64,000 nucleotides of DNA from Deltaproteobacteria bacterium. GTDB lineage: Bacteria; Myxococcota_A; UBA796; GCA-2862545. Location: NCBI GenBank assembly GCA_006226595.1, contig SBGP01000098.1:1-64000 (forward strand). The letters are read 5' to 3'. Position numbers and translations under genes: made by a program. Of this stretch, positions 8,976 through 56,117 are shown piece after piece. How positions within the stretch are numbered: position 1 is the first letter of the stretch; every line of letters begins with the position of its first letter. The notes below the pieces were generated by a model that saw only the letters and a list, made by a program, of their open reading frames with translations, did not search any database and was not told the DNA's origin.

Positions 8976-9062
8976 GTCGGCACTCCAGGCGGACACGGAC
9001 GGTATCACCAGGCGGTCGGTTCTGCCGGTGTCGGCTCGGCGACGCTCACGCTCGCGGGGGGG

Positions 9063-9776
9063 TCAGGGCGCGAAGTGCGACAGCCACTGGTCCTGGTAGG
9101 GCATGGTCGACGCCCGCACCGTGGCGATGTACGCCTCGACGTCGTAGCCGACCTGATGGATCGACACCGAGACCCCGTGCGGGCCGAGCTCGATCACGCC
9201 GTACTCGGCGAAGCGCAGGACCACGGGCCCCTGCTTGCCCCCGCGGAACACCTCCTCGAAACTCAGCCCCACGCTGCCCACGTTGACGATGAGCTGCTGG
9301 CCCAGGCGACGCACGAAGGGCGAGTGGGAGTGCCCGGCGACGACCACGTCGTGGTCGACCTCGGCGAGCATCTCCCGGTACCCGGCGGCGTCGACTTCCC
9401 CGTCGATGATCTCGGTGTTCGAGCGCGGCGAGCCGTGCACGCCGAGCAGTCGATGCCCGTGAGCCTCGCGCTCCAGCGAGAACGGCAGCGCATCGAGCCA
9501 GGCGCGTTGCTCATCGTCGAGGATTTCGCGGGTCCACCGCTCGACCGCGAGCAGCATCGGATGACGCGGCTGCTCGTCGAGGAAGTCGTGGTTTCCGCCG
9601 ATGCAGGCGATGCCGCGCTCGCGCAGCATGGTGACCACCTCGACCGGCTGGGGGCCGAGGTCGACGATGTCTCCGAGGCACACGACCTCGTCGACACTGC
9701 GCGCGTCGATGTCCGCGAGGACCGCGTCGAGAGCCGGGACGTTGCCGTGCAGGTCGGAGATGAACGCGATGCGCAT
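9063..9776 (-). CDS. Metallophosphoesterase (YfcE/MJ0936-like)
   Basis: A 237-residue calcineurin-like phosphoesterase with the full dinuclear metal signature: ISDLHGN (Asp, His), GDIVDLGP, IGGNHDF and VVAGHSHSP. The pattern fits the small YfcE-type group, which hydrolyses phosphodiesters in vitro. A GSVGLS motif near the C-terminal third is also typical. It sits 87 bases upstream of the flavin monooxygenase on the same strand and could lead that operon, but no functional link is evident. It is divergent from the oligopeptidase gene, with about 90 bases between starts. Confidence 0.9.
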   Translation of the reverse strand: MRIAFISDLHGNVPALDAVLADIDARSVDEVVCLGDIVDLGPQPVEVVTMLRERGIACIGGNHDFLDEQPRHPMLLAVERWTREILDDEQRAWLDALPFSLEREAHGHRLLGVHGSPRSNTEIIDGEVDAAGYREMLAEVDHDVVVAGHSHSPFVRRLGQQLIVNVGSVGLSFEEVFRGGKQGPVVLRFAEYGVIELGPHGVSVSIHQVGYDVEAYIATVRASTMPYQDQWLSHFAP

Positions 9777-9867
9777 GGACGAAGCCTACACCGGGGCGCG
9801 CGATTGTGGCGAGTCACGCAACACGAGTCCCTGTCGGTTATCAGGCGCCGCCAGAGAGGTAGTGTCC

Positions 9868-11910: not shown

Positions 11911-11923
11911 GCCTGTCGAAGCT

Positions 11924-11956
11924 CGTCACCCGGGGCATGCGATGCCACGGGTGACG
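11924..11956 (+). terminator. Hairpin after ptrB
   Basis: A nested stem-loop: CGTCACCC at 11924-11931 pairs with GGGTGACG at 11949-11956, and inside it GGCAT pairs with ATGCC. It starts 14 bases after the oligopeptidase stop codon. There is no following T-run, so termination may need Rho, or the hairpin may act as a 3' stability element or as a leader element of the next gene, whose start is at 11980. Confidence 0.45.
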
Positions 11957-11979
11957 CGGCGCCGAGATAGGGTGCGGCC

Positions 11980-13338
11980 ATGCGCACCGCCGCCCTCCTC
12001 TTCTTGCTCGCCTGCCGCGGCCCCGCCGACACGGGGACCGACACCGGCAGTGCGTCCGACACCGCGAGCAGCGCGGACAGCGGGACGAGCGAAGACACCG
12101 GCGAGCTGCGGCGCTTCCTGCGCGACGACGACGGCGACGGCTTCGCGCCGGCCGGCGGCGACTGCAACGACGAGTCCCCCGCGATTCGACCCGGCCGCCC
12201 CGAGGTCGACTGCGACGGCGTCGACCAGGACTGCGACGGCGTGGTCGACGAGGGCGGGCTGTGCGGGGACGACGATGGCGACGGCCTCTCGGATGCCGAG
12301 GGCGACTGCCATGACGGCGATGCGGCGGTCGGCCCCCAGGGCACCGAGATCCCGCTCAACGGCATCGACGACGACTGCGATGGCACCGTGGATGCGGGCT
12401 CGCTCGACCTCGACGGCGACGGCTGGGATCCCGGCCTCGACTGCGACGACGCGAACCCCGCGGTGAACCCGATCGCGCCGGAGCTTCCCGACGGCGAGGA
12501 CGACGACTGCGACGGGCGTATCGACGAGGGCACCCTCGCCTACGACGCGGATGGCGACTGCGCCTGCCCCCAGCTCGGCGGCGTGTGCACGGCGAGCGCG
12601 AACCCCGAGTGCACCGAGCTGCGCACGCGCGACTGTGACGACGGCGAGGCCCTGCGTTTTCCGGGCAACCCGGAAGTCGCCGACGACCTCGACAACGACT
12701 GCGACCTGCGCATCGACGAGGGCACGGGGGTGACCGCCGTCGATGCCGATGGCGACGGCACGAGCCCGGCGGGTGGCGACTGCGACGACGCGGACCCCGC
12801 TCGCTCCCCTGCCCTGCGCGAGACCGCCGACGGCACGGACGAGGACTGCGACGGGCGGGTCGACGAGGGCACCGCCGACTACGACGACGACGGCGACGGC
12901 ATGACCGAGAACCAGGGTGACTGCCACGACGGCGACCCCAGCGTGCGACGCGGCCTGCCCGAGATCGAGGGCAACGGCTACGACGACAACTGTGACGGCT
13001 TCTCGGCGAGCGCGATCGACCCCGACGGCGACGGGTTCACCGCAGTGGGCGGGGACTGCCAGGTCCTCGACCCAGCCTTCCACCCCGGGGCGCCGGAGCT
13101 CGCGGACGGCTGGGACAACGACTGCGACGGCATCATCGACGAGGACACCGCGCGCGACGACGTGGACGGCGACGGGTCGTGCCTCGGCGCCGACATCGAC
13201 GGCGACGGTACCCCCGAGTGCCGCGTGAATTCCGACGTCGTCGGCGACTGTGACGACGCCGACGACCGCGTGTGCCCGACGTGCAGTGTGGTCCGCGACA
13301 ACGGCAAGGACAACGACTGCAACGGCGAGGTCGACTAA
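11980..13338 (+). CDS. MopE-type metal-binding-motif repeat lipoprotein
   Basis: A 452-residue secreted lipoprotein: lipobox LLAC at residues 9-12, a Thr/Ser/Asp-rich linker, then about eight repeats. Each repeat centres on an Asp/Cys motif such as DQDCDGVVDEG or DDDCDGRIDEG, preceded by DGDG and GGDCDD segments. These match the putative metal-binding motif of MopE-like proteins abundant in myxobacteria; the DxDGDG runs look like calcium sites. Very acidic overall. It probably sits on the cell surface as a metal-loaded rod; its function is not established. The final repeat ends in DNDCNGEVD just before the stop. Confidence 0.85.
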   Translation: MRTAALLFLLACRGPADTGTDTGSASDTASSADSGTSEDTGELRRFLRDDDGDGFAPAGGDCNDESPAIRPGRPEVDCDGVDQDCDGVVDEGGLCGDDDGDGLSDAEGDCHDGDAAVGPQGTEIPLNGIDDDCDGTVDAGSLDLDGDGWDPGLDCDDANPAVNPIAPELPDGEDDDCDGRIDEGTLAYDADGDCACPQLGGVCTASANPECTELRTRDCDDGEALRFPGNPEVADDLDNDCDLRIDEGTGVTAVDADGDGTSPAGGDCDDADPARSPALRETADGTDEDCDGRVDEGTADYDDDGDGMTENQGDCHDGDPSVRRGLPEIEGNGYDDNCDGFSASAIDPDGDGFTAVGGDCQVLDPAFHPGAPELADGWDNDCDGIIDEDTARDDVDGDGSCLGADIDGDGTPECRVNSDVVGDCDDADDRVCPTCSVVRDNGKDNDCNGEVD

Positions 13339-13405
13339 CCGACGCCGAGCGTCGGAATCCGTCGAAGCCCGGGTTCGTCACTTCGTCGTTCTTCGCCGAT
13401 CGGGC

Positions 13406-13489
13406 GGTCTGACCCCTCGTTCCGCTCTGACCCCGGAGGGGGGTCTGACCCCACCCGGGGGTCAGACCCCCAGGTGGGGTCAGACCCCC
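13406..13489. repeat. Cluster of GGGGTCTGACCCC palindromic units (REP-like)
   Basis: Five copies of a short near-palindrome in 84 bases. GGTCTGACCCC-type units occur at 13406, 13425 (degenerate) and 13441, and the reverse complement GGGGTCAGACCCC type occurs at 13457 and 13476. Neighbouring units of opposite sense can form long hairpins. It fills the gap of 278 bases between the convergent MopE-like gene and the cytochrome-like gene. Such clusters resemble REP/BIME elements mobilised by TnpA-REP transposases; no such gene lies in the window. It could also act as a bidirectional transcript end. No gene is seen in the rest of 13339-13616. Confidence 0.75.
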
Positions 13490-13616
13490 GCGAGCCTATG
13501 GTTCATGCGCACTCGCGGAGGTCCCGCCCGCACGGAGTCGTCCCTTTCGCGCCGCGCGGGAACCGACTTCCCACGCCGACTCGGGCCTGCCTGGCCCGGT
13601 TCGTGCACCGTCGACG

Positions 13617-13976
13617 CTACTCGGGCGCTCCCGCGTCGATCCACGCCGCGAACAGGTCGATCTCCTCGTCGGAGAGCCAGCGACCGAGCGGCATGTTCGA
13701 CCCGGAGCCCTCGGCGAGCACCTGTGTGCCGTTGAGCTTGTGCCACAGGTAGCTCTCGAGCGCCGCGCCCGGCGCGACGAGCGGGTACTCGGACTGCGCC
13801 GAGCTCGCGTCGACCATCGCCCCGAACGCGTCGTCGTAGAGGTCGAAGCCCGCCTCGGCCTCGTCGCCCGCGTGGCAGCCGATGCACTCGTACTGGACGA
13901 TGGGCGCGATGTCCTCCTCGAAGGACAGCCCGTCGCTCGCACAGCCAACCAGGACCATCAGAGGGAGCCACCTCAT
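13617..13976 (-). CDS. Small c-type-cytochrome-like lipoprotein
   Basis: A 119-residue secreted lipoprotein (lipobox LVGC near residue 12) with one CxxCH haem-binding motif (CIGCH), preceded by DIAPIVQYE and followed by PLGRWLSDEEIDLFAAWIDAGAPE. This is the pattern of planctomycete/myxobacterial cytochrome C domains that accompany DUF1592 proteins. Its ATG overlaps the stop of the DUF1552 gene (ATGA). It probably forms an envelope redox unit with the two genes upstream, a role inferred from conserved gene pairing; the substrate is unknown. Confidence 0.8.
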   Translation of the reverse strand: MRWLPLMVLVGCASDGLSFEEDIAPIVQYECIGCHAGDEAEAGFDLYDDAFGAMVDASSAQSEYPLVAPGAALESYLWHKLNGTQVLAEGSGSNMPLGRWLSDEEIDLFAAWIDAGAPE

Positions 13977-15283
13977 GACAGGTCCACCAGGCCGGTGCTG
14001 TCCTGGCCGAACGAGCTCTCCGCGACGCCTGCCGCGTTCAGCATGGTCAAGAACAGGTTCGCCATCGGCGTTCCGGCAGGCAGCTCGACGTGACGCCCCG
14101 GGAGCACCGCGCCGCCGCCACCACCGGCGAGCAGCACGGGCAGATCGTTGTGGTTGTGCCAGTCGCCGTCGCTGATCTCGCTCGAGAAGTAGGCCAGCGT
14201 GTGGTCGAGCAGCCGCGAACCATCGGCTTCCTGCACCGCTCCGAGCTTCTGCACGAGGTCGGCGAACTGCGCGACCTCCCAGGTGTCGATGGTGGTCAGG
14301 TTGGCGAGGTTGGTCGCGTCGTTGCCATGGTGAGAGATCTCGTGATGCGCGCCCGTCACACCCAGGAAGTCGTAGGCGCGGTTGCTGCCGCCGTTGCCGA
14401 GCATGAACGTCGCGACCCGCGTCAGGTCGCACTGGAGCGCGAGCACCATCAGGTCGTTCATCGCCTGGACCCGCCCCTCGACGTCGAGTGAGGAGTCCGG
14501 CGCCTCTCCGGGCACGCACTGCTGGTCGCCGAGCAGCTCGATGCGGGTCTCGAGCTGGCGCACGGCGGTGAGGTACTCGTCGAGCTTGAGCTGGTCGGTG
14601 CGTCCGAGGCGTCCGTGGAGCGCATTCGCGTCCTCGAGCACGTAGTCGATCACCGACAGCCGCAGCTGCTTGCGTCGCTCGATCTCCTCGGCGGTAACCG
14701 TCGGGTCGTAGCCGGCGAACAGGCGCGAGAACGCGAGCCGCGGGTCCGTGATCTTCGGCAGCGGCGTGGCGACGCCAGCCCAGCTGATGTTGCGCACGTA
14801 GGCACACGAGTAGCCGCTGTCGCAGTCGCCGACGGCATCGCCGCCCTCGGTGCCCAGCTCGATACTCGGGAATGGCGTCTGCCCAGCGGTGGCCTGCGCG
14901 AACACCTGGTCGACGCTGATGCCGTTCTCGATGTCCGCACCCGCCGTCTGGGTGACCGTGCGACAAGTCAGGAAGCTGCCAGTGCCGCGGGCATGGTCGC
15001 CCGCGAGGGGCACGCTCGCCGCGGCGTTCTCGAGCCCGGTGAGCACGGTGACGTCGTCGCGCACGCCGGCCAGCGGCGCGGTGATCGTGTTCAGCGTGTA
15101 GTCGAAGCCCGTGGACAGCGGACGGAAGCGGTCCATCACCATGCCGTTGGGCACGTACCAGAACACCAGCCGAACCGGGGGCGTCCCGGGAGCGCCCGCC
15201 CATGCTGCCCGCGGCAGGGCCGAAGTCAGGGTCGGGAGCGCGAGGGTCGCGGCGGCGGAGCGAAGGAAGGTGCGGCGGTTCAT
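13973..15283 (-). CDS. DUF1552 protein with Tat signal
   Basis: A 436-residue exported protein beginning MNRRTFLRSAAATLALP, a twin-arginine-type signal. The body matches DUF1552, a sulfatase/DUF1501-like alpha/beta fold, with FWYVPNGM, GDHARGTGSFLT, HHEISHHGND and a C-terminal NLFLTMLNAAG. DUF1552 proteins occur almost always next to a DUF1592-type partner, as here, in planctomycetes and myxobacteria. Both ends overlap their neighbours by ATGA, so the three proteins are likely made together. Export folded through Tat suggests a cofactor or metal. No biochemical role is established. Confidence 0.88.
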   Translation of the reverse strand: MNRRTFLRSAAATLALPTLTSALPRAAWAGAPGTPPVRLVFWYVPNGMVMDRFRPLSTGFDYTLNTITAPLAGVRDDVTVLTGLENAAASVPLAGDHARGTGSFLTCRTVTQTAGADIENGISVDQVFAQATAGQTPFPSIELGTEGGDAVGDCDSGYSCAYVRNISWAGVATPLPKITDPRLAFSRLFAGYDPTVTAEEIERRKQLRLSVIDYVLEDANALHGRLGRTDQLKLDEYLTAVRQLETRIELLGDQQCVPGEAPDSSLDVEGRVQAMNDLMVLALQCDLTRVATFMLGNGGSNRAYDFLGVTGAHHEISHHGNDATNLANLTTIDTWEVAQFADLVQKLGAVQEADGSRLLDHTLAYFSSEISDGDWHNHNDLPVLLAGGGGGAVLPGRHVELPAGTPMANLFLTMLNAAGVAESSFGQDSTGLVDLS

Positions 15284-44285: not shown

Positions 44286-46061
44286 ATGCAGACGAGCTAC
44301 CGCACGATCGCAGAAGCCATCGCGAACATCGGCCAGGAATGGCCCGACAAAGGCTTCGTCTTCCAGGACGCCAAGGGCGAGGAGCGTCGCTACAGCTTCC
44401 CGGAGGTCGAGGAGGAGACGGCTCGCCGCGCCGCCGGCCTGCAGCAGATGGGCCTCGAGAAGGGCGACCGCTTCGGCCTCATCGTGATCGAGCCGGAGGA
44501 CTTCGTCCTCGACTTCCTCGCCGCGCTCCGCGTCGGCATCCTCCCGGTTCCGCTGTACCCGCCGCTGTCCATGGGCAGCCTCGACGCGTACGCCGACCGC
44601 ACCGCGCTGATCCTGTCGACCGCCAAGGCCAAGGTGCTCGTCGCGAGCGAGAAGCTCCAGAACGTGCTCTGGTCCCTCGTCGACCGCGTCCCGACCCTCG
44701 AGAAGCTGGTCCGCGCCGAGACCCTCGGCCAGACCACCGCCAAGCCGGTCTACCCGACCATCGAGCCCGACGACCTCGCGTTCCTGCAGTACACCTCGGG
44801 CTCGACCAGCGACCCGAAGGGCGTCATGGTCACCCACGGCTCGCTCATCGCGAACGTCAACGGCATCATGGGCCCCAACGGCCTCAACATGAACCCGGCC
44901 GTCGACAAGGGCTGCAGCTGGCTGCCGCTCTACCACGACATGGGCCTCATCGGCTTCGTGATCTCCCCCATCGTGTGGGGCGTCGAGGTCGTGTTCATCC
45001 CGACCATGCGCTTCATCCGCCGCCCGAACACCTGGATGGACACCATCCACCGCCACCGGGCCACCGCGACCTTCGCGCCGAACTTCGCGTACGCGCTGAT
45101 CACCCGCCGCTGCAAGGACAACGACCTCTCCAAGTGGGACCTGTCGTGCCTCAAGGCCTGTGGCTGCGGCGCCGAGCCCATCCACCCGGACACCATGCGG
45201 GAGTTCACCGCGCTCTTCTCCGAGAAGTGCGGCATGCCCGAGAACGCCATCCTGCCCGCGTACGGCATGGCCGAGGCCACCCTCGCCATCAGCCTCAAGG
45301 ACGTGGACAAGCCGATGCGCACCATCGTCGTCGACGCGCAGAGCTTCGAGGACGAGGGCGTGGTCAAGGCGCCCGAGGGCGATGACACCGTGGTCCTCGA
45401 GCACGTGTGCTGTGGCCCGGCCTTCCCCGGCCACGAGGTCGCCGCGTTCGACGGCGATACCCGCCTCGCCGAGGGCGTCGAGGGCGAGCTGTGCGTCCGC
45501 GGCCCGAGCGTGACCCCCGGCTACTTCGAGAACCCCGAGGCCACCGCGTCGACCTTCCGCGACGGCTGGCTGCGCACCGGCGACCTCGGCTACCTCGTCG
45601 ACGGTGACATCGTGATCACCGGTCGCCTCAAGGACCTGATCATCTTCAACGGCCGCAACATCCACCCGCAGAGCGTGGAGTGGGTTGCCGCCGAGATCGA
45701 CGGCGTCCGCAAGGGCAACGTGGTTGCGTTCTCCCGTCCCGGCGCGTCGAGCGAGGAGCTGGTGCTCGCGCTCGAGACCCGTGCGGCGGACAAGGAGCAG
45801 CTCGTCAAGCTCGTGAAGCAGGCCGTGCAGCGCGAGATGAGCCTGACCATCAGCGAGGTCGTGTGCCTCGAGCCCGGCTCGCTCCCGAAGACCAGCTCCG
45901 GCAAGCTGCAGCGTCGCAAGACCCGCCAGCAGTTCATGAACGGCAGCCTCGGCACCGAGGGCAGCCGCGCCATGGGCAGCAACGCGGACAAGGTGACGCT
46001 CGCCAAGCACGTCGCCAAGTCCCTGTGGAGCCGCGCCAAGGCGCGCGTGCTCGCCAAGTAG
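44286..46061 (+). CDS. Fatty acyl-AMP ligase (FAAL)
   Basis: A 591-residue adenylate-forming enzyme. Core motifs: YTSGSTSDPKGVMVTH (P-loop), WLPLYHDMGLIG, YGMAEATLA, RTGDLGYLVDGD and the C-terminal GRLKDLIIFNGRNIHPQ. The WLPLYHDMGLIG and NIHPQ forms are characteristic of FAALs, which make acyl-adenylates and pass the acyl chain to an acyl carrier protein rather than to CoA. It is the first gene of the FAAL - ACP - PKS/AOS cluster and most likely loads the starter fatty acid onto the carrier encoded at 46131. AGGAG precedes the ATG. Confidence 0.93.
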   Translation: MQTSYRTIAEAIANIGQEWPDKGFVFQDAKGEERRYSFPEVEEETARRAAGLQQMGLEKGDRFGLIVIEPEDFVLDFLAALRVGILPVPLYPPLSMGSLDAYADRTALILSTAKAKVLVASEKLQNVLWSLVDRVPTLEKLVRAETLGQTTAKPVYPTIEPDDLAFLQYTSGSTSDPKGVMVTHGSLIANVNGIMGPNGLNMNPAVDKGCSWLPLYHDMGLIGFVISPIVWGVEVVFIPTMRFIRRPNTWMDTIHRHRATATFAPNFAYALITRRCKDNDLSKWDLSCLKACGCGAEPIHPDTMREFTALFSEKCGMPENAILPAYGMAEATLAISLKDVDKPMRTIVVDAQSFEDEGVVKAPEGDDTVVLEHVCCGPAFPGHEVAAFDGDTRLAEGVEGELCVRGPSVTPGYFENPEATASTFRDGWLRTGDLGYLVDGDIVITGRLKDLIIFNGRNIHPQSVEWVAAEIDGVRKGNVVAFSRPGASSEELVLALETRAADKEQLVKLVKQAVQREMSLTISEVVCLEPGSLPKTSSGKLQRRKTRQQFMNGSLGTEGSRAMGSNADKVTLAKHVAKSLWSRAKARVLAK

Positions 46062-46130
46062 TTTCCACGCCGCTCCCGTACACAGGGAGCGCCATCCCCT
46101 CGCCGCGCGCGCGGCACACTGGAGTACCCG

Positions 46131-46376
46131 ATGACCGACGAGAAGGTCCTCTCCCTCATCAAGGAAGCCCTCTTCGACGTGGCCCCGAGCCGCAAGGAGG
46201 AGTTCGAGGACATCCAGATCTCCACCACCATCGAGGATCTGGCGCTGGACTCCATCGCCACGATGGAGATGGTCGGCTTCCTCGAGGACAAGACCGACAT
46301 GACCTTCCCCGACGAGGAGCTCGCGAAGGTCCAGTCGCTCGACGACCTCGCGAAGATGATCCGCGCCGCCGCGTGA
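46131..46376 (+). CDS. Free-standing acyl carrier protein
   Basis: An 81-residue four-helix carrier protein. The phosphopantetheine site is LALDSIATMEM, with the DS(I/L) serine near residue 41. Very acidic around helix II. It lies 69 bases after the FAAL gene, so it is the natural acceptor of the FAAL-activated fatty acid and donor to the ketosynthase of the next gene. The PKS has its own internal carrier domain, so this one most likely serves loading. Confidence 0.9.
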   Translation: MTDEKVLSLIKEALFDVAPSRKEEFEDIQISTTIEDLALDSIATMEMVGFLEDKTDMTFPDEELAKVQSLDDLAKMIRAAA

Positions 46377-46437
46377 TCTTCGCGCTCCGTTCGGCCGCTT
46401 CGGCGGTCGGGCGGGACCAAAGTCTGTCTTCGGACGC

Positions 46438-46571
46438 GTTTCGAGTTTCGAGTTTCGAGTTCCGAGGACGAGGCAGTGAGGCCCCGCCGCCATCTTTGTG
46501 CGGTACGGGGCCTTGCGACCTGTAGGGCTTCCCTCCGGTAGCTCACTCGAAACTCGAGACGGACTCGAAAC
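46438..46571 (+). repeat. Long imperfect hairpin with TTTCGAG repeats in the ACP-PKS gap
   Basis: The 268-base gap 46377-46644 has no gene. It contains GTTTCGAG repeated in tandem (46438-46462, three near copies) and, about 90 bases later, the inverted form ACTCGAAAC-type repeats (46546-46571). Between them AGGCCCCG pairs with CGGGGCCT, with CCGC/GCGG inside. The whole can fold into one long stem-loop. It may be a small mobile repeat (MITE- or REP-like), or a leader that sets expression of the giant synthase relative to FAAL and ACP. Orientation is not determined by sequence. Confidence 0.6.
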
Positions 46572-46644
46572 CCGCCCCGGCACGCTCCGCCCGCAGAATC
46601 ACTCGCGAGGCCGCAAAAGCCGGAACACACACGAGGATTCCATC

Positions 46645-49600
46645 GTGTCTGCCATTGCTATCGTCGGTATGGGCTGTCGCTTCGCCGGAGCCCGGGACCT
46701 CCACGAGTACTGGGAGCTGACCCGCGAGGGGCGCCACGCCTTCTCCGAGCCCCCGGCCGACCGCTGGAACCACGAGGTCTTCTTCTCGACCTCGCGCCGT
46801 GCCACCGACACCAGCTACGCCCCCAAGGGCGGGTTCATCCAGGACGTGAAGTCCTTCCCCGCGCTGGCGCTCGGCCTGCCCCCGCGGCGCGTCGAGGTCA
46901 TGGACCCCCAGCAGCGCTTCGTGCTCGAGTCCGCGATGCAGGCCATCGAAGACGCCGGCGGCGACGTCCCCTACCGCACGGGCGTGTTCGTCGGCGTCAC
47001 CGCCATCGAGTGGCGCTCGCTGATGGCGACCCGCATCATGGCCCGGCTCATGGCCGCCGGTGACCTCGGCGAGGCTCCCGCGGACCCGGTGGCGATCGCC
47101 GAGTCCGTCGAGAACGTCGTGCCCTCGCGCCCGTTCTCGGCCCCCGGCGTGCTCGGCAACATGAACGCGGCGACCATCGCCCAGGAGCTCGACCTCCACG
47201 GTCCGGCCTTCTCGGTGGATGCGGCGTGCGCCTCGGCGCTGATCGCGGTGAACAACGCGATCACCCAGCTCCGCACGGGCCAGATCGACGCGGCCCTCGC
47301 GGGCGGCGTGTACCTGTGCCTCACCCCCGAGCACCACGTCGCGTTCTCGCGGATCGGCGCGATGAGTGCGTCGGGCGAGGCGCGTCCCTTCGATGCCCGC
47401 GCCGACGGCTTCGTGCAGGGCGACGGCGCCGGCATGATCCTGCTCAAGCGTCTCGAGGATGCCCAGCGGGACGGCGATCGCGTCTACGCCGTGCTCCACG
47501 GCGCGGCCTACAACAACGACGGCCGCGGCGATGGCCCGATGGCCCCGGTCCAGGCCGGCCAGACCGACTGCATCGAGCTGGCGTGGAAGGACGCGGGCGT
47601 CGACCCCGCGCAGCTCGGCTACGTCGAGACCCACGGCACCGGTACCGGCGTCGGTGACATCACCGAGTTCAACGGCCTGATGGACGCGATCGGCGGCCAG
47701 GTCAAGCACGCAGCCCTCGGCTCGTCCAAGGCCAACGTCGGCCACACCATGTCCGCCGCGGGCATCGCCGGCGTGATCCGCGCCGCGCTCGCCATCCACC
47801 ACCAGACGATCCCGCCGATGGCCGGCTTCGAGTCCCCGAAGCCCGACCTTCCGATCGACGGCAGCCCGTTCCACATCCCGACGAGCTGCGAGGCCTGGGA
47901 AGGCCCGAACCGCCTCGCCGGCGTGAGCAGCTTCGGCTTCGGCGGCACCAACGCCCACGTCGTGCTCGGCAGCGTCGACAGCGCGACCGAAGTCCCCGCT
48001 CAGGCCGAGCTGGTGCTGATGTCCGCGCCCGACGAGCCCAAGCTCCGCGATCTGGCCAAGCGCACCGCCGCCGCCATCGCCGCCGACCCGACGATCACCG
48101 TCGCCGGCGTCGCTCGCGCGTGGGCCCTGCGTCGGCACCAGCCGGCGCGACTCGGCGTGGTCGCCACCAGCCGCGAGGAGCTGATCACCGCCCTCGAGGG
48201 CATCGGCGCCGGCGAGTATCCGGCCGGAGCCCAGATCGGCACCGCCGACGGCGAGGTCAAGCTCGCCTACCTGTACCCGGGCCAGGGTGCCCAGCGGACG
48301 GGCATGCTCGCCGACATCAAGCAGCGCTTCGGCGTGGTCTCCGAGACCCTCGACGCCATCGAGTCCGAGCTCGACGGCGAGCTCGCCCTGCCGCTGACCC
48401 ACCTCATCTACCCCGAGCTGCGCGAGACCGCGGTCGACGAGGACACCGCCAGCGCCGAGCTCACCGCGACCGAGAACTGCCAGCCGGCGCTGCTCTCGAC
48501 GGGCATGGCGCTCACCGCACTGCTCGACACCGTCGGCGTGAAGCCCACCGTGGTCGTCGGCCACAGTCTCGGCGAGTTCACCGCTGCCGCCGCGGGTGGC
48601 GTGCTCTCCGCCGCCGACGCCGCCCGCTTCGTGGCCCGTCGGGGCAAGGCGATGGCCGACCTCGCGGGCGATCCCGGCACCATGGCCGCGGTCATGGCCG
48701 AGCGCGAGATCGTCGAGCAGCTGCTCGTCGACGGCGCGGTGATCGCGAACGTGAACCATCCGCGGCAGATCGTCGTCTCCGGTGCGACCGAGGCGGTGAA
48801 GCAGGTGGTCGCCAACGCCGAGGCCAAGGAGGTCAAGGCCAAGCTCCTGACCGTGTCCCACGGCTTCCACAGCCCCGCCCTCGCGGGACTCGATACCGAC
48901 GGCATCGTCGACGCGCTCGAGCTGTCGAACCCGTCGGTGACCGTCGCCTCGGGCATCGCCGACCGCCCGTACCGCGACGCGACCGACGCGCGCGACGTGT
49001 TCCGCCGCCACGCCGTGTCCCCCGTGGACTTCGTGCAGGCGCTGGCCCAGTGCCGCGAGGCGGGCGCGAACCTGTTCCTTCAGGTCGGCGCGGGCGGCCC
49101 GCTCGCCGCCTTCGCGCGCGGCGCCATGGATCGCGACCACAAGGGCATCGTGTCCCTCGCGGGCATGAACGACCACGACGGGGGCGCCAGCCTCCTCGAG
49201 GCGCTCGCTCGCCTGTACATCGCCGGCGTGAACGTCGACGTTCGCCCGATCACGGCCCAGGCTCCCTTGGCGTCGGTGCCTCCGGTCGTGCTGCCGCGCG
49301 AAGAGTACTGGGCGATCAAGGACGAGCCGCAGCTCGCGCTCAACCTGCAGGGTCTGAACGCCGAGCCTCGCGAGCGCAAGGAGCGTCCGGTCACCGCGAA
49401 GAACGTCGAGGCCCCCGCGGTCGAGGAGCCCGTCGCCGCTGACGGCGACCCGATCGAGGAGAAGGTGCTCGGCATCGTCGCCAAGGTCAGCGCCTACCCG
49501 CGCGCGGCACTGCGCGTCGACATGGCACTCGTCGACGACCTCGGCTTCGACTCGCTGATGGTCGGCGACCTCGCGACCGGCCTCGCCGAGGCCTTCCCCG

Positions 49601-52600
49601 GTATCGGCGGCATCCCGCAGGAGATGCTGATCAACCGCCCGACGGTGCAGGACCTCGTGGACTTTGCGCGCGGGCAGGGCCAGGGCGGCAACGTCGACGT
49701 CGACGACGACGCACCGCTCACCGCCTATGCGCCCGTGTGGCGTCCCACCCCGCTCCCGGCCGAGACCCGCGAGCTGCAGTGGCCCGTGTACACCGAGCAC
49801 GCAGGCCTCGCCGCGATGCTCGACGCCGAGGGCATCGCCCGCACCGACGACCTCGCGAAGGCGAAGACCGTGCTCGTGCAGCTCGGCACCGCGCCCAGCG
49901 TGCAGGCCGTCGCCGAGGGCACGCCGTGGCCCGACACGGCCGCCCCGGTGATCGCCATCGCGGACGCGCTCGCCAAGGCCAACCGCAGCGCCGACCTGTT
50001 CGTGCTCGGCGGCACGGACCCGTGGGCCGAGGGTGCCTTCGGTGCGGTGCGCGCCATCGCCCGCGAGTGGCCGACCCAGGTGGTCAAGGCGCTGCACGTC
50101 GACGGCGCGCTCGACGCGGACCGCCTGCTCGCCGAGCTTCGTTCCGCCGACGTCTCGGTGGACGTGCGTCTCACCGCCGAGGGCCGCGACGTGCTCGGTC
50201 TCGAGCCGGCCGCGGACGAGGTCACGTGGACGCCGTCCGACAAGGACACGGTGCTGATCACGGGTGGTACCCGCGGACTCGGCGCGCGCATCGCGAAGCA
50301 GATGGTCGATGCCGGCGCCCAGGTCGTGCTCGTCGGTCGCGGCTCCCCGGGTGCCGAGGCCCAGGCGCTCATCGATGCCTCCGAGGGGCGCGCGGTGGCC
50401 ATCGCCGCCGATGTCACCGACAAGGATGCGCTGCTCGCCGCCGCTACGCCGCACGGCCCGTACACCGCGGTCGTGCACAGTGCCGGCGTGCTCGCCGATG
50501 GCGCGCTCGGCCAGGTCGACGCCGCCCGTGGCGAGAAGGCCCGCAAGGTCAAGGTCGATGGCTGGCTCAACGCCATCGCCGCCGCGCCCGAGGCCACCGT
50601 CGCCTTCGGTCTCGGCTCCTGGGCGGGCCGCTTCGGCAACCGCCACCAGGCGCACTACGCTGCCGCGAACAGCCTGCTCGCCGCCCTCACCCAGGGCTTC
50701 GCGGGCCGCGCGGTGGTCGGCGAGTTCGGTCCGTGGACCGGCACCGAGATGGTCGACACCATCCCCGCGCCGGTGCAGGCCGCCATGCGCTCCGAGGGTA
50801 TCGACTTCGTCGGACCCGAGGCCGGCGCCGCGGCGATTGCCACACTGATGGGCGGCGCGTCGGGCACTCGCGTGCTCGGCCGCGACCTCACCCGCACCCT
50901 GCGCAGCTTCGCGTGGACCGAGACGCTGTCCACCGAGACGCACCCGTTCCTGCTCGACCACGCGGTGCAGGGCGTGCCCGTGCTCCCGCTCGCCTCCGCC
51001 ACCGACCTGCTCGCGTGGGGAGCCGGGGTGCATGCACCGTTCGAGATCGTCGACCTGCGCCTGTTCCAGGGCATCACCGTGCGTGAGCCCACCCGGATCC
51101 GGGTGCGCGTAGACGGCGAGTCCGCGTCGATCACGGTCGGTGAGCGCGACGCGCTCGCGTACAAGGCGCGCGTGCGTCGGATCGACGGCGACTACGACGA
51201 CCCGGGCATGCTCACCGACGGCGCCGAGCCGATGATGTCGCTCGCCGACTTCTACGACGGCAAGACCTTCCACGGTCCGCTGCTCCAGGGCATCACCCGC
51301 ATCGACGCCGTGTCCGAGGACTTCGTGCGCGGCAAGGTGCGCATCGGTCAGCCCCGCGAGTGGATCCCCGGCACCCGTCGCGAGGCGTGGAGCGTGGACC
51401 CGCTGGCCATGGACTCGGCCATGCAGCTCTCCGCGTACGTGGCGTGGCTGCGCTACGGCCGCGCCGGCACCCCGGTCGGGCTCGGTCGCTACGTGCAGCT
51501 CGCGCCGCTCCCGGCCTCCGGAGAGATCGTCGCCGAGGTCACCTTCGGCGAGGCCGAGGACAACCGCTTCACCGGCACCCTGTGGCTGCGCGCCCTCGAC
51601 GGCACGCTGCTCGCGGTGGCCGAGGACGTGGTCGCCGAGCTCCGCAAGGTCGAGGACGGCGCCGAGGACGAGGACGAGGACGACTTCGAGGTGAAGCCCG
51701 AGTGGGTGGACCCCTCCACGTGGCCCGCGTACAAGGACCTGATGCAGCGCCTGACCATGGCCGAGATGGTGGGCATCAAGAACCCGTACTTCACGGTGCA
51801 CGAGGGCACGGCTCGCAACGTCACGAGCGTCGAGGGCCGCGAGCTGGTCAACTACTCCTCGTACAACTACCTCGGCCTCTCCGGCGAGCCCGAGGTCCTC
51901 GCGGCAACCCGCGAGGCGGTGGACAAGTACGGCACCAGCGTGTCCGCCTCTCGCGTCGCCAGCGGCGAGCGTCCGTTCCACCAGGAGCTCGAGGCCAAGC
52001 TCGCCAAGGCGCAGGACACCGAAGACTCGCTGCTGTTCACCGCGGGCCACGCGACGAACGTGACCACCATCGGTCACCTGTTCGGACCCGAAGACCTGAT
52101 CATGCACGACGAGCTCATCCACGACTCGGCGCTGCAGGGCATCAAGCTCTCGGGCGCCTCCCGTCGCGCGTTCAAGCACGACGACCCGGCGAACCTCGAG
52201 GCCCAGCTCAAGCAGCTGCGCAAGCACTACCAGAAGGTGCTCATCGTCGTCGAAGGCGTGTACTCGATGGACGGCGACATCTGCGACGTGCCCGCGTACA
52301 TCGCGCTCAAGAAGAAGTACGGCTGCATGCTCATGGTCGACGAGGCGCACAGCTTCGGCGTGGTCGGCGCGACCGGCTGCGGCGTTCGCGAGCACTTCGG
52401 CTTCCCCGGCACCGACGTCGATATCTGGATGGGCACGCTGTCCAAGAGCCTCGCGAGCTGCGGCGGCTGGATCGCGGCCAAGAAGGACCTGGTCACGTAC
52501 CTGCGCTACACCGCGCCGGGCTTCGTGTACTCGGCGGGCCTGACCCCGGCGAACGGCATGGCGGCCCTCAAGGCCCTCGACAAGATGCTCGACGAGCCGG

Positions 52601-52920
52601 AGCGCGTGCAGACGCTGCAGGACAACGCGCAGTACTTCCACGACGAGCTCGTCAAGCGCGGCCTGGACACCGGCCCAGCGCTCGGCGGCAGCGCGGTCAT
52701 CCCGGTCGTCACCGGCAACTCGATGCACGCCCTGATGCTGTCCCAGCGGCTGGTCGAGCAGGGCATCAACGTGCAGCCGATCGTGTACCCGGCGGTGGCG
52801 GACGACGCGGCCCGGCTGCGCTTCTTCCTGTCGTCGACGCACACGCGCGAGCAGCTGCTGTGGACCGCCCAGACGGTGGCCGACACCCTCGCCAGCGTGC
52901 GCGCCGACTTCGCGGTCTGA
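46645..52920 (+). CDS. Polyketide synthase-alpha-oxoamine synthase fusion (KS-AT-ACP-KR-DH-AOS)
   Basis: A 2091-residue megasynthase. Ketosynthase: Cys195 (VDAACAS), His330 (ETHGTGTG), His367 (ANVGHTM). Acyltransferase: Ser641 (GHSLGE), His742 (GFHSPA), malonyl-like. Carrier: Ser970 (LGFDSLM). Ketoreductase: TGGTRGLG near 1206, Tyr1338 (YAAAN). Dehydratase: His1439 (HAVQGVPVLP), Asp1590 (DSAMQ). C-terminal PLP enzyme from about 1690: DEAHSFG, Lys1934 (LSKSLASCGG). No thioesterase and no enoylreductase. Predicted work: accept an acyl chain from the FAAL/ACP pair, add one malonyl unit, then release by decarboxylative condensation with an amino acid, giving an alpha-amino ketone. The GTG start follows GAGGA. 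Product not identified. Confidence 0.92.
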   Translation: MSAIAIVGMGCRFAGARDLHEYWELTREGRHAFSEPPADRWNHEVFFSTSRRATDTSYAPKGGFIQDVKSFPALALGLPPRRVEVMDPQQRFVLESAMQAIEDAGGDVPYRTGVFVGVTAIEWRSLMATRIMARLMAAGDLGEAPADPVAIAESVENVVPSRPFSAPGVLGNMNAATIAQELDLHGPAFSVDAACASALIAVNNAITQLRTGQIDAALAGGVYLCLTPEHHVAFSRIGAMSASGEARPFDARADGFVQGDGAGMILLKRLEDAQRDGDRVYAVLHGAAYNNDGRGDGPMAPVQAGQTDCIELAWKDAGVDPAQLGYVETHGTGTGVGDITEFNGLMDAIGGQVKHAALGSSKANVGHTMSAAGIAGVIRAALAIHHQTIPPMAGFESPKPDLPIDGSPFHIPTSCEAWEGPNRLAGVSSFGFGGTNAHVVLGSVDSATEVPAQAELVLMSAPDEPKLRDLAKRTAAAIAADPTITVAGVARAWALRRHQPARLGVVATSREELITALEGIGAGEYPAGAQIGTADGEVKLAYLYPGQGAQRTGMLADIKQRFGVVSETLDAIESELDGELALPLTHLIYPELRETAVDEDTASAELTATENCQPALLSTGMALTALLDTVGVKPTVVVGHSLGEFTAAAAGGVLSAADAARFVARRGKAMADLAGDPGTMAAVMAEREIVEQLLVDGAVIANVNHPRQIVVSGATEAVKQVVANAEAKEVKAKLLTVSHGFHSPALAGLDTDGIVDALELSNPSVTVASGIADRPYRDATDARDVFRRHAVSPVDFVQALAQCREAGANLFLQVGAGGPLAAFARGAMDRDHKGIVSLAGMNDHDGGASLLEALARLYIAGVNVDVRPITAQAPLASVPPVVLPREEYWAIKDEPQLALNLQGLNAEPRERKERPVTAKNVEAPAVEEPVAADGDPIEEKVLGIVAKVSAYPRAALRVDMALVDDLGFDSLMVGDLATGLAEAFPGIGGIPQEMLINRPTVQDLVDFARGQGQGGNVDVDDDAPLTAYAPVWRPTPLPAETRELQWPVYTEHAGLAAMLDAEGIARTDDLAKAKTVLVQLGTAPSVQAVAEGTPWPDTAAPVIAIADALAKANRSADLFVLGGTDPWAEGAFGAVRAIAREWPTQVVKALHVDGALDADRLLAELRSADVSVDVRLTAEGRDVLGLEPAADEVTWTPSDKDTVLITGGTRGLGARIAKQMVDAGAQVVLVGRGSPGAEAQALIDASEGRAVAIAADVTDKDALLAAATPHGPYTAVVHSAGVLADGALGQVDAARGEKARKVKVDGWLNAIAAAPEATVAFGLGSWAGRFGNRHQAHYAAANSLLAALTQGFAGRAVVGEFGPWTGTEMVDTIPAPVQAAMRSEGIDFVGPEAGAAAIATLMGGASGTRVLGRDLTRTLRSFAWTETLSTETHPFLLDHAVQGVPVLPLASATDLLAWGAGVHAPFEIVDLRLFQGITVREPTRIRVRVDGESASITVGERDALAYKARVRRIDGDYDDPGMLTDGAEPMMSLADFYDGKTFHGPLLQGITRIDAVSEDFVRGKVRIGQPREWIPGTRREAWSVDPLAMDSAMQLSAYVAWLRYGRAGTPVGLGRYVQLAPLPASGEIVAEVTFGEAEDNRFTGTLWLRALDGTLLAVAEDVVAELRKVEDGAEDEDEDDFEVKPEWVDPSTWPAYKDLMQRLTMAEMVGIKNPYFTVHEGTARNVTSVEGRELVNYSSYNYLGLSGEPEVLAATREAVDKYGTSVSASRVASGERPFHQELEAKLAKAQDTEDSLLFTAGHATNVTTIGHLFGPEDLIMHDELIHDSALQGIKLSGASRRAFKHDDPANLEAQLKQLRKHYQKVLIVVEGVYSMDGDICDVPAYIALKKKYGCMLMVDEAHSFGVVGATGCGVREHFGFPGTDVDIWMGTLSKSLASCGGWIAAKKDLVTYLRYTAPGFVYSAGLTPANGMAALKALDKMLDEPERVQTLQDNAQYFHDELVKRGLDTGPALGGSAVIPVVTGNSMHALMLSQRLVEQGINVQPIVYPAVADDAARLRFFLSSTHTREQLLWTAQTVADTLASVRADFAV

Positions 52921-53098
52921 CGCACGTCAGCGAGCTACCCGCGAGGCCCCGCTTGTCGCGTTGACACCGGGGTCTCGCGGTGGCATGCTGCGCCCATCGT
53001 ACGCCCTACGGTCCCATCGAGTCTCTTGCTGCCTCGATGGGCAATCGCCGACCTTCGCGGCTCTAGGCCGCTCGGTGCCCTCGGCAGGGAGCTCCTCC

Positions 53099-54271
53099 AT
53101 GATCGCCTCTCTCGTTCGGACCAGCCTCCTCGGGTCTGTCGCCCTCCTCGCCATCGGCTGTGGCTGCCGACAGGACTATGACCTCGTCGCGCCCATCGAC
53201 AACTCGCCCGAGGCGGACTGGGGCCAGTGGCTGTCCATGGACACCACCCCTGACGGGCGCCTGGCGATCACCTACTACACCACCGACCAGAACGGCTCGA
53301 TTCGCTTCGCTGCCGGCTCCCCGCGCTCCGATGGCTCGGTGGTCTGGGACCACGAGGACGTGGACGGTGGACCGGTCGACGGCCTGAACCCCGGTGACCG
53401 CGGCAAGTACACGTCCATGCGCGTCGCCGAGAGCGGCACGGTGTGGGCGAGCTACCACGACGAGGCCCTCGGCACCCTGCGCGTCGCCCAGCGCGTGAGC
53501 CCGGACAACTGGGTCTCCGACGTCGCCGACCAGGGCGGTGGCCTCGCGCCGAAGTACGGCATGTGGTCCTCCCTCGACCTCGACGCCGACGAGCACCCGG
53601 TCGTCGCCCACTACGACGGCGACAAGCAGGAGCTGCGCGTCGCGCACTTCGACGGCGAGGCGTGGTCCGCCGAGACCATCGACCAGGGTCAGGACAACAT
53701 CTACGTCGATCCCGAGACCGCCGAGACGATCACGGTCGATGCCGACGTCGGCAAGTACGCCAAGATCATGATCCACGACGGCACCGAGTACATCGCGTAC
53801 TACGACGCCGCCTACGGCACGCTCAAGCTCGCGGAAGGCTTCGCCGGCGCGTACACCACTTCGGTGATCTACGACGTCCAGGGCGTGGACGCGGGCCAGT
53901 GGCCCGACCTGTGGACCGACGGCACCAGCCTGGTCGTCACCTTCCAGGACGTCACCAACCAGGACCTGATCATGGGTACCCGGACCGGCGGCGTGTGGAC
54001 CTTCGAGACCATCGACGACAGCATCTTCGCGGGCGCTGACACCGAGGTCGTCCAGAAGGACGGGGACTTCGCGGTGGTGTACTTCGACGGCCACAACAAC
54101 GACATGCGCCTCGCCGAGCGCGTGAGCGGCGCGTGGGAGACGACTCGCCTGGGCGGCACCAACGCGGCGGTGGGCTTCCACAACGAGATCACCCAGGCCG
54201 GCGACGGTACCTGGTGGGTCGCGAGCTTCGACTACACGAACCGGAACCTGTTCGTCCGCCCGATCGACTAG
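53099..54271 (+). CDS. Secreted propeller-like lipoprotein
   Basis: A 390-residue lipoprotein (lipobox LAIGC near residue 21, then GCRQ). The mature protein has repeated blade-like units such as GRLAITYYTTDQNGSIRFA, GTVWASYHDEALGTLRVAQ and TEYIAYYDAAYGTLKLAEG, about 45-60 residues apart, predicting a six- or seven-bladed propeller. No catalytic motif. The ATG at 53099 follows GGCAGGGAG. It lies 178 bases after the megasynthase with no sign of co-transcription. Confidence 0.75.
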   Translation: MIASLVRTSLLGSVALLAIGCGCRQDYDLVAPIDNSPEADWGQWLSMDTTPDGRLAITYYTTDQNGSIRFAAGSPRSDGSVVWDHEDVDGGPVDGLNPGDRGKYTSMRVAESGTVWASYHDEALGTLRVAQRVSPDNWVSDVADQGGGLAPKYGMWSSLDLDADEHPVVAHYDGDKQELRVAHFDGEAWSAETIDQGQDNIYVDPETAETITVDADVGKYAKIMIHDGTEYIAYYDAAYGTLKLAEGFAGAYTTSVIYDVQGVDAGQWPDLWTDGTSLVVTFQDVTNQDLIMGTRTGGVWTFETIDDSIFAGADTEVVQKDGDFAVVYFDGHNNDMRLAERVSGAWETTRLGGTNAAVGFHNEITQAGDGTWWVASFDYTNRNLFVRPID

Positions 54272-54337: not shown

Positions 54338-55366
54338 GTGCTCCTGAGCCTGCTTCTCGGCCTGATTGGCGGCGTAGCCTCGGCGGGTGATGTCGTCATC
54401 GACTTCCTCGATGTCGGCCAGGGCGACAGCACGCTGATCCGCGGTGGTGGAAAGGCGGTGCTCATCGACGCCGGAATCGCAGATGCTCGCGTCGCCGGCC
54501 AGCTCAAGAGCCTCGGCGTTCGCCAGCTCGACCTGGTCGTCGCGACTCATGCCCACGCCGACCATATCGGCGGCATGGCGGACGTCCTGGGCCTGCTCGA
54601 CGTGAAGCTGTACGTCGACAGCGGCCTTTCCCACGAGACGCGCGCCTACGACCGCACGATGGAGCAGGTCGAGGCCAAGCACATCAAGCACCTGCGCGCG
54701 CGGACCGACATGACGCTGCGCATGGGCGACGAAGCCATCCTCCACGTGCTGTGGCCGGGCGAGACCTACCTCAAGGACACCCGCTCGGACCTCAACAGCA
54801 ACTCCGTGGTGATCTGGCTCGAGCACGGTGAGATCGACGCCCTGTTCACCGGAGACGCGGAAGAGCCAACCGAGCACGCGCTGCTGCGCGGCAAGCTTCC
54901 CGAGGTCGAAGTGCTCAAGGTCGCCCACCACGGCTCGGCCCACAGCAGCACCCCGGCCTTCCTCGCCCGTACCTCCCCCGAGATCGCGGTGATCTCCTGC
55001 GGCAAGGACAACCGCTACGGCCATCCGGATGCGGGAACGGTCAAACGGCTCGCGAGCCACGGAGCGATGGTGTTCCGCACCGATCTCTCCGGACAGGTGC
55101 GGGTGATCAGCAACGGCTCCGAGGTCGAGGTGATGGAGGGCGACCTGTCGCTGTTCCGCACCGCGCCCAGCGCCGTGGCCACGCAGGACGACAAGCCGAT
55201 GCTCGCCGCCCAGGCGCCACAGCCCGCTCCGAGCAAGCCCGAGCCCACGACCACCGAAGCCCCCGAGGACGTCGCGAGCTGGCTCTCCGGCGTCAGGCCG
55301 AGCACCGGTGTCCCCGAAGAGGACACGGGCAAGAAGAAGAAGAAGAAGAAGAGGACGAAGCCATGA
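54338..55366 (+). CDS. ComEC-type MBL-fold hydrolase with signal peptide and poly-lysine tail
   Basis: A 342-residue exported protein (signal peptide MLLSLLLGLIGGVASA). The domain matches the metallo-hydrolase part of ComEC: FLDVGQGDSTLI, VVATHAHADHIGG (THxHxDH metal site), LFTGDAEEP, VAHHGSAHSS and YGHPDAGTV. Proteins of this kind may degrade the non-transforming DNA strand. The C-terminal 40 residues are Pro/Glu-rich and end in seven consecutive lysines then RTKP, perhaps binding DNA or wall polymers. GTG start with GAGGTG upstream. Coupled to the DUF3006 gene (ATGA). Confidence 0.88.
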   Translation: MLLSLLLGLIGGVASAGDVVIDFLDVGQGDSTLIRGGGKAVLIDAGIADARVAGQLKSLGVRQLDLVVATHAHADHIGGMADVLGLLDVKLYVDSGLSHETRAYDRTMEQVEAKHIKHLRARTDMTLRMGDEAILHVLWPGETYLKDTRSDLNSNSVVIWLEHGEIDALFTGDAEEPTEHALLRGKLPEVEVLKVAHHGSAHSSTPAFLARTSPEIAVISCGKDNRYGHPDAGTVKRLASHGAMVFRTDLSGQVRVISNGSEVEVMEGDLSLFRTAPSAVATQDDKPMLAAQAPQPAPSKPEPTTTEAPEDVASWLSGVRPSTGVPEEDTGKKKKKKKRTKP

Positions 55367-55560
55367 GAGCCGTGGTCGACCGAATCGAAGGCGAGTTCGC
55401 GATCCTCGAGATCGAGGGAATCACCATCGACTTTCCCGTGTCCCTGCTTCCTGCGGACACGCGCGAGGGGCACGTGTTCAGCTTGAGCCTCGAGCGCGTC
55501 CAGACCCCTGTACCCACCGAGGATGAGCGCCCCGACGAGATCCTCGACATCCAGCTGTGA
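55363..55560 (+). CDS. DUF3006 protein
   Basis: A 65-residue acidic protein matching DUF3006: RAVVDRIEGEFAILEIEGI, a short beta-barrel-like motif, and a C-terminal DEILDIQL. DUF3006 genes commonly sit beside ComEC-like MBL hydrolases, as here, where the ATG overlaps the upstream stop. No signal peptide, so it would act in the cytoplasm, perhaps on the mRNA or on the precursor of its neighbour. Role unknown. Confidence 0.82.
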   Translation: MRAVVDRIEGEFAILEIEGITIDFPVSLLPADTREGHVFSLSLERVQTPVPTEDERPDEILDIQL

Positions 55561-55571
55561 GTGGAGCCCCC

Positions 55572-56117
55572 ATGCGCGTGATCTTCCTCCTCCTCGGACT
55601 GCTTCTCTCGGGCATCGCCTGGGCGGGCGTGAACATCAACACCGCGACGGTCGAGGAGCTCGACAGCCTGCCGGGCATCGGGCCGAGCAAGGCCGAGGCG
55701 ATCGTCGCCTACCGCCAGGAGAACGGCCCGTTCGCCAGCGTCGATCAGCTCGACGCGGTGCCGGGCATCGGGCCCGCGACCCTTGCGAACCTGCGCGACC
55801 TCATCGAGGTCGGCCCGGGCGGCACCGCCCCCGCAGCGCCGGCCCCTACCGCCGCCGCGAGTGCCACGCCGCCGCCGCCGGCCGCTCCGGACAACTCTCC
55901 CCTGCCCTCGTCCACCGGACTCATCGACGTGAACACGGCGGGTGCGGACCAGCTGACCTCGCTGCCAGGCATCGGACCGACCAAGGCGGCCGCCATCGTC
56001 GCCGATCGCGAGCAGAACGGTCCCTACAGCTCGTGCCAGGACCTCACGCGGGTCACGGGCATCGGCTCCGCGACGGTCACCGCCATCGCCAAGCAGTGCA
56101 CGGCTAGCGGCCAGTAG
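55572..56117 (+). CDS. ComEA-like secreted protein with two helix-hairpin-helix domains
   Basis: A 181-residue exported protein (signal peptide ending IAWA). Two ComEA-type HhH units are separated by a Pro/Ala linker: VNINTATVEELDSLPGIGPSKA and later DVNTAGADQLTSLPGIGPTKAA. HhH units bind double-stranded DNA without sequence preference. With the ComEC-type hydrolase and DUF3006 just upstream, the set looks like envelope DNA-handling components. The ATG at 55572 has GGAG upstream; a GTG at 55557 overlaps the previous stop and is possible. Confidence 0.88.
   Translation: MRVIFLLLGLLLSGIAWAGVNINTATVEELDSLPGIGPSKAEAIVAYRQENGPFASVDQLDAVPGIGPATLANLRDLIEVGPGGTAPAAPAPTAAASATPPPPAAPDNSPLPSSTGLIDVNTAGADQLTSLPGIGPTKAAAIVADREQNGPYSSCQDLTRVTGIGSATVTAIAKQCTASGQ

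What the first reader, a model, noticed from the sequence alone, without database searches (positions are those of the whole stretch)
44286..52920. FAAL - ACP - PKS/alpha-oxoamine synthase cluster for a sphingoid-like amino ketone
Three genes give a complete logic: activate a fatty acid as acyl-AMP, load it on a free ACP, extend by one malonyl unit with ketoreduction and dehydration, then release it by PLP-dependent condensation with an amino acid. The synthase ends in the alpha-oxoamine synthase and has no thioesterase or enoylreductase. The product should be an unsaturated long-chain alpha-amino ketone, a polyketide route to sphingoid-type lipids. No known product cluster with this exact fusion comes to mind.
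Basis: partly seen in the sequence, partly recalled or inferred. Interest (0 to 1): 0.72.

Follow-up and report, generated by a model that had tools for sequence, protein, structure and literature searches.

The report
Polyketide-built sphingosine-like lipid synthase
Three neighbouring bacterial genes form an assembly line that probably takes a fatty acid, lengthens it by one unit, leaves a double bond in it and joins it to the amino acid serine; this would be a desaturase-free route to the backbone of sphingosine, and it is conserved across much of one order of little-studied bacteria.

Summary
In detail: a fatty acyl-AMP ligase (44286-46061), a free ACP (46131-46376) and a 2091-residue KS-AT-ACP-KR-DH-AOS synthase (46645-52920). 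Catalytic motifs are intact, there is no enoylreductase or thioesterase, and the DH folds confidently as a PKS dehydratase. In the order, 45 of 63 genomes carry the synthase, nearly always with the FAAL beside it. The AOS groups with PKS-partnered AOS enzymes (SgaB/RkpG type), not with Kbl, BioF or HemA; SgaB is a proven serine palmitoyltransferase (2025). A ketosphinganine-reductase-like SDR co-occurs, next to the FAAL in two relatives and elsewhere in the window's own genome.

Best reading: FAAL and ACP load a fatty acid; one malonyl extension with KR and DH gives a trans-2-enoyl thioester; the fused AOS condenses it with serine to a 3-keto-4-ene sphingoid base. New variant of a known kind: FAAL-loaded, ER-less and fused, predicted to install sphingosine's 4,5-double bond without a desaturase. 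Substrate, number of rounds and product are untested.

The parts
44286..46061 (+). Fatty acyl-AMP ligase (FAAL): activates a fatty acid as acyl-AMP and loads it on an ACP
   Evidence: Pfam AMP-binding 225 bits; NCBIfam best NF006624 fatty acyl-AMP ligase, 487 bits, below its curated cut-off of 600; PDB matches led by FAAL 3pbk, E 4e-98; start codon by comparison with L040
46131..46376 (+). Free acyl carrier protein, 81 aa
   Evidence: PF00550, E 1.2e-07; between FAAL and synthase in most relatives
46645..52920 (+). Synthase KS-AT-ACP-KR-DH-AOS, 2091 aa (ORF open from 46498)
46651..48105 (+). Ketosynthase domain; catalytic Cys and two His present
   Evidence: Pfam; motifs DAACASA, HGTGT, KANVGH conserved in relatives
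48268..49164 (+). Acyltransferase domain, malonyl-type motifs (GHSLGEF, HGFH/HAFH)
49459..49665 (+). Internal ACP domain (DLGFDSL), placed before KR and DH as in PfaA
50248..50700 (+). Ketoreductase domain, catalytic part; K, S, Y, N present; Asp of VLADG and no A-type Trp suggest B-type
   Evidence: Pfam KR 80 bits; motifs; type assignment is inference from known fingerprints
50815..51663 (+). Dehydratase domain; His (DHAxxGxPxxP) and Asp (DSAxQ) invariant
   Evidence: PKS_DH_N; invariant H49 and D200 in A1; AlphaFold2 pLDDT 91.6; best Foldseek hits are PKS dehydratases, E 1.4e-14
51694..52917 (+). Alpha-oxoamine synthase domain, SPT-like; PLP Lys in MGTLSKSL at 52444-52446

Best explanation
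A dedicated long-chain-base synthase. (1) FAAL activates a free fatty acid and transfers it to the stand-alone ACP. (2) The KS takes the acyl chain, the AT supplies malonyl, and one decarboxylative extension occurs on the internal ACP. (3) KR and DH reduce and dehydrate to a trans-2-enoyl thioester; with no ER in the protein, the double bond stays. (4) The C-terminal AOS, an SPT-type PLP enzyme, condenses the enoyl thioester with L-serine, losing CO2, and releases a 3-keto-4-ene sphingoid base (3-ketosphingosine-like). (5) A separately encoded KDSR-like reductase, in this genome at G000:C115:5841-6659, reduces the 3-ketone to a sphingosine-type amino diol, presumably a membrane-lipid precursor. 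Shown here by sequence and comparison: the anatomy, intact catalytic residues, operon conservation, AOS affiliation and the co-occurring reductase. Inferred: chain length, one round of extension, E geometry, serine as substrate and the fate of the product. My estimates: sphingoid-type amino ketone 0.85; serine 0.75; double bond retained in the product 0.6.
For: Anatomy and intact active sites; DH fold; FAAL identity. AOS domain about 50-54% identical to PKS-partnered AOS of Pseudomonas (SgaB-like by gene context), Paraburkholderia, Methylobacterium, Streptomyces and Planktothrix, and placed in their clade (97/97), next joined by plant LCB2 (98/96), apart from Kbl, BioF and HemA (96/99). The residue before the conserved Arg is Ser (SAS-R), as in SPTs, BioF and SgaB-like enzymes, not Val (Kbl) or Thr (HemA). 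SgaB itself uses serine almost exclusively (PMC12134224). KDSR-like SDR with a PP[DNT]TxTP motif beside the FAAL in L054 and (cut by the contig end) L046, and about 4 kb from it in L049; the C-terminal part of one such SDR matches Tsc10 best in the PDB. In the order: synthase+/SDR+ 38, synthase+/SDR- 8, synthase-/SDR+ 4, synthase-/SDR- 13. Acyl-ACP synthetase + special ACP + SPT is experimentally established in Caulobacter and relatives (PMC9386255).
Against: No member of this exact type has been assayed. The AOS reaches no curated SPT cut-off (318, 280 and 216 bits against 640, 500 and 670) and scores slightly higher on the BioF model (344, also below its cut-off). The SDR lies in trans in most genomes and is absent at my threshold in 8 carriers, including G023, a 99% complete one. 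The association is confounded by ancestry (families f5 and f6 lack both), and KDSR-type SDRs occur without the synthase in family f3 (G013, G031). Four genomes of the order carry sphingolipid Delta4-desaturase-like (Lipid_DES) matches, three of them synthase carriers, so a saturated PKS product is not excluded there.
Confidence: 0.68

Rival explanations
1. Same pathway, but the product is a saturated sphingoid base: an enoylreductase acting in trans (for example FabI/FabV-like) removes the double bond before the AOS step, or the DH is skipped.
For: Relatives of the SgaA and RkpA type have an ER, and SgaAB makes saturated sphinganines. Trans-acting ERs are known in other PKS systems (general knowledge). 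Lipid_DES-like proteins exist in a few carriers.
Against: No ER family in any of 22 synthases and none recognised among the genes next to the operon in the loci I read (read by eye, not all scanned). DH residues are invariant.
Confidence: 0.25
2. The AOS uses another amino acid (alanine, glycine, cysteate or similar), so the product is a deoxy-sphingoid or sulfonolipid-type base or another alpha-amino ketone.
For: AOS enzymes are a diverse superfamily; the BioF (alanine) model scores as high as SPT models; BioF also has Ser at the substrate position.
Against: Tree position with SgaB/RkpG-type AOS and LCB2; SgaB strongly prefers serine over alanine and glycine (PMC12134224); the MGTLSKSLASCGG motif is shared with SgaB-like and RkpG-like AOS and in large part with LCB2.
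Confidence: 0.15
3. The PKS works iteratively and makes a longer, polyunsaturated aminoketone, with FAAL supplying only the primer.
For: SgaA is iterative (PMC12134224); the domain order KS-AT-ACP-KR-DH is that of PfaA, an iterative PUFA synthase subunit (TIGR02813, 531 bits, below its cut-off of 1010).
Against: A dedicated FAAL and free ACP suggest a long primer, which needs only one extension to reach sphingoid length; no PfaB/C/D-like partners were recognised beside the window operon.
Confidence: 0.15

Closest known systems
PfSgaA/PfSgaB(/SgaC) of Pseudomonas fluorescens MYb115 (PMC12134224)
   Same: Type I PKS feeding an SPT-type AOS, then a KDSR homologue; gives sphingoid bases
   Different: SgaAB is two separate genes and makes saturated C24-C28 sphinganines; a related Pseudomonas plasmid PKS has DH, ER and KR. 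Here the AOS is fused, the ER is absent, the domain order is KS-AT-ACP-KR-DH, and a FAAL and ACP load the primer.
RkpA/RkpG-type and Sga-type capsule-locus PKS + AOS (+ SDR) in Sinorhizobium, Rhizobium, Shinella, Paraburkholderia, Caballeronia
   Same: PKS plus AOS of the same AOS clade; the SDRs of S. meliloti and Shinella carry a PPDTxTP motif
   Different: Capsule genes around them; the S. meliloti PKS is fully reducing; AOS not fused. The rkp names are my identification from content and general knowledge; the records carry generic product names.
Planktothrix agardhii plasmid p3 PKS (WP_042158693) with FAAL
   Same: AOS fused at the C-terminus of a PKS, FAAL gene nearby
   Different: KS-AT-DH-ER-KR-ACP-AOS order, fully reducing; glycosyltransferases around; no product known to me
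AasR-AcpR-SPT of Caulobacter and other Rhodobacteria (PMC9386255)
   Same: Acyl-ACP synthetase + specialised ACP feeding an SPT
   Different: No PKS extension; stand-alone SPT
Fungal fumonisin (FUM1/FUM8) and sphingofungin (Sph) pathways
   Same: PKS chain released by an AOS, with a KDSR homologue (FUM13, SphF; PMC12134224)
   Different: Fungal highly reducing PKS, separate AOS, toxin products
PfaA-type PUFA synthase
   Same: KS-AT-ACP-KR-DH order
   Different: Score below the PfaA cut-off, one internal ACP instead of a tandem array, AOS instead of PfaB/C/D partners

Membership tests
PKS-partnered AOS clade (SgaB/RkpG type) | AOS phylogenetic placement in the clade | tested here: met
   43-row clade with support 97/97
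SgaAB/RkpAG-type gene pair | Fully reducing PKS (DH, ER, KR) and separate AOS gene | tested here: not met
   No ER in 22 relatives, AOS fused in all; contrast
SgaAB/RkpAG-type gene pair | Capsule/LTA-synthase gene neighbourhood | tested here: not met
   No such genes recognised next to the window operon or the relatives read; contrast
Serine palmitoyltransferase (NCBIfam equivalogs NF047599/600/603) | Curated score cut-off | tested here: not met
   280/318/216 bits against 500/640/670
Serine palmitoyltransferase (function) | PLP Lys, stacking His, Asp, conserved Arg, Ser at the substrate-carboxylate position | tested here: met
   MGTLSK, IHDS, VDEAH, LRFFL, SAS-R; residue roles from general knowledge
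Serine palmitoyltransferase (function) | Serine used as substrate | not testable with these tools
   needs an enzyme assay
Fatty acyl-AMP ligase | Closest characterised structures are FAALs | tested here: met
   3pbk best, FadD23/28/32 among the rest
3-ketodihydrosphingosine reductase (in-trans SDR) | PP[DNT]TxTP motif and best similarity to Tsc10 | tested here: inconclusive
   Motif in 17 of 18 SDRs examined, own genome YPPTTDTP; C-terminal fragment of one (L108) matches Tsc10 8jat best; over the full length of the L054 SDR general SDRs rank higher
PfaA PUFA synthase | TIGR02813 cut-off and tandem ACPs | tested here: not met
   531 against 1010 bits, one internal ACP

The most novel reading that the evidence does not exclude
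A polyketide module builds sphingosine's 4,5-trans double bond before the serine condensation, so the bacterium makes 3-ketosphingosine directly, with no Delta4-desaturase, and much of an order of bacteria uses this as its standard route to long-chain bases.
Probability: 0.45. Interest if true: 0.78.

Novelty: new variant of a known kind. Interest (0 to 1): 0.62.

Why it matters
It would add an order of bacteria that, so far as I know, has not been examined for sphingolipids to the likely producers, show a desaturase-free way to make 4-ene sphingoid bases, and offer a compact three-gene system for making such bases. Screens for sphingolipid producers that rely on curated SPT cut-offs would miss it.

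Tried and rejected
One search used an out-of-frame translation by mistake; it is not used as evidence. A phylum-wide search with the whole synthase failed and was replaced by the AOS domain, whose weaker hits (35-42% identity) are other AOS enzymes. Considered and rejected: PfaA-type PUFA synthase (score and partners); Kbl, BioF or HemA identity of the AOS (tree; the own genome has a separate Kbl and a probable BioF gene); prodiginine PigH-type (separate branch); the long antisense ORFs as genes (shadow frames in 70% GC DNA). Eukaryotic-type ceramide synthase (PF03798) was sought in the order and not found above cut-off; bacterial ceramide synthase was not sought. No paper on FAAL-ACP-PKS-AOS clusters was found; the library is incomplete.

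Full report
Observation. The window (about 70% GC) carries three co-directional genes at 44286-52920. The synthase is open from 46498, but relatives begin at the residue corresponding to GTG 46645, so I take 2091 aa. Pfam gives KS, AT, ACP, KR, PKS_DH_N and AOS in that order. The PLP lysine, KS Cys/His/His, AT Ser/His, both ACP serines, KR Lys/Ser/Tyr/Asn and DH His/Asp are all present.

Conservation. In the order, 45 of 63 genomes hold the synthase at E<=1e-180, and scattered genomes elsewhere in the phylum do too. In the fetched loci the FAAL is next to it in nearly all complete cases and the ACP usually lies between; L059 has the synthase without either, and a few loci have no ACP that similarity finds. 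Across 33 full-length proteins the catalytic motifs hold. None of 22 scanned has an ER. The DH model (pLDDT 91.6) matches PKS dehydratases, with the GphF, AlnB, CurJ and PpsC DH domains among the best. The KR has the Asp of VLADG and no Trp at the A-type position, which by published fingerprints (general knowledge) suggests a B-type KR and hence a trans double bond; this is inference.

Which amino acid. By HMM the AOS is undecided: BioF 344, SPT 318, Kbl-like 314 bits, none above its cut-off. By tree it lies with AOS enzymes that partner PKSs: a Pseudomonas plasmid pair (SgaB-like by context), Burkholderiaceae, rhizobial RkpG-type, Planktothrix and Streptomyces, with plant LCB2 the next relative among my references but one, and away from Kbl, BioF and HemA. 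Several long branches are flagged in that tree. SgaB of P. fluorescens MYb115 binds serine, uses it almost exclusively over alanine and glycine, and makes 3-ketosphinganines (PMC12134224). This makes serine the best guess.

The reductase. A neighbour-gene comparison turned up an SDR beside the FAAL in L054 and at the contig end in L046, and about 4 kb from the FAAL in L049. Such SDRs carry a PP[DNT]TxTP motif, and the C-terminal part of one matches fungal Tsc10 best among solved structures. Homologues occur in 42 of 63 genomes at E<=1e-50, including the window's own (G000:C115:5841-6659, YPPTTDTP). The 2x2 table with the synthase is 38/8/4/13, Fisher p 2.4e-5. That p-value ignores shared ancestry and overstates the case; I read it as supportive only. 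S. meliloti and Shinella PKS-AOS clusters have an SDR with the same motif directly downstream; the SDRs of the Pseudomonas and Burkholderiaceae clusters lack it.

Function. The FAAL-ACP pair parallels AasR-AcpR, which feeds SPT in Caulobacter and relatives (PMC9386255). The PKS step then adds one C2 unit and leaves an alpha,beta double bond. Serine condensation of such a thioester puts the double bond at C4-C5, as in sphingosine. A Delta4-desaturase signature (Lipid_DES) is not found in G000 or in 59 of the 63 genomes, so if 4-ene bases are made there, the PKS is the obvious candidate source. The alternative, a saturated base through a trans-acting ER, stays open.

Known versus new. Bacterial PKS-derived sphingoid bases (SgaAB), fungal ones, and a fused PKS-AOS with a FAAL in Planktothrix are precedents. 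What differs is the ER-less, PfaA-ordered module with fused SPT-type release and FAAL-ACP loading, conserved in one order. One relative in the same family (G002) has a contig of the same length, 802,519 bases, as a record deposited as Proteobacteria bacterium DTSAM18, an unclassified Pseudomonadota, and is probably that genome.

Noticed in passing
L054:13340-14257 (-): Cyclopropane-fatty-acid-synthase-like methyltransferase between FAAL and ACP in one relative; might modify the chain.
   Followed up: partly
L065:17663-19452; also L068, L071: A chalcone/stilbene-synthase-like ketosynthase, paired with an enoyl-CoA hydratase in L065 and L071, lies upstream of the FAAL in genomes of family f2. 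Assignment by eye; no domain scan was run.
   Followed up: no
L125 (Planktothrix agardhii plasmid p3) 124-13203: FAAL plus fused KS-AT-DH-ER-KR-ACP-AOS with glycosyltransferases: a fully reducing cousin.
   Followed up: partly
L120 (Streptomyces anthocyanicus plasmid) 7800-15209: KS-AT-ACP-AOS protein without KR or DH, divergent from an MMPL transporter gene.
   Followed up: partly
L140, L141, L142 (G025, G030, G037); also G009: Lipid_DES (sphingolipid Delta4-desaturase N-terminal) matches above cut-off in four genomes of the order.
   Followed up: no
L074:7004-8299 (G000:C117): A further stand-alone AOS of unclear kind in the same genome; no NCBIfam cut-off met.
   Followed up: partly
window 52961-54271: Putative lipoprotein-like gene just downstream, with similar genes at the same place in several relatives of the family.
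   Followed up: no
window 54338-56117: ComEC-C-terminal-like metallo-beta-lactamase-fold protein followed by a short protein that looks like a helix-hairpin-helix (ComEA-like) one.
   Followed up: no
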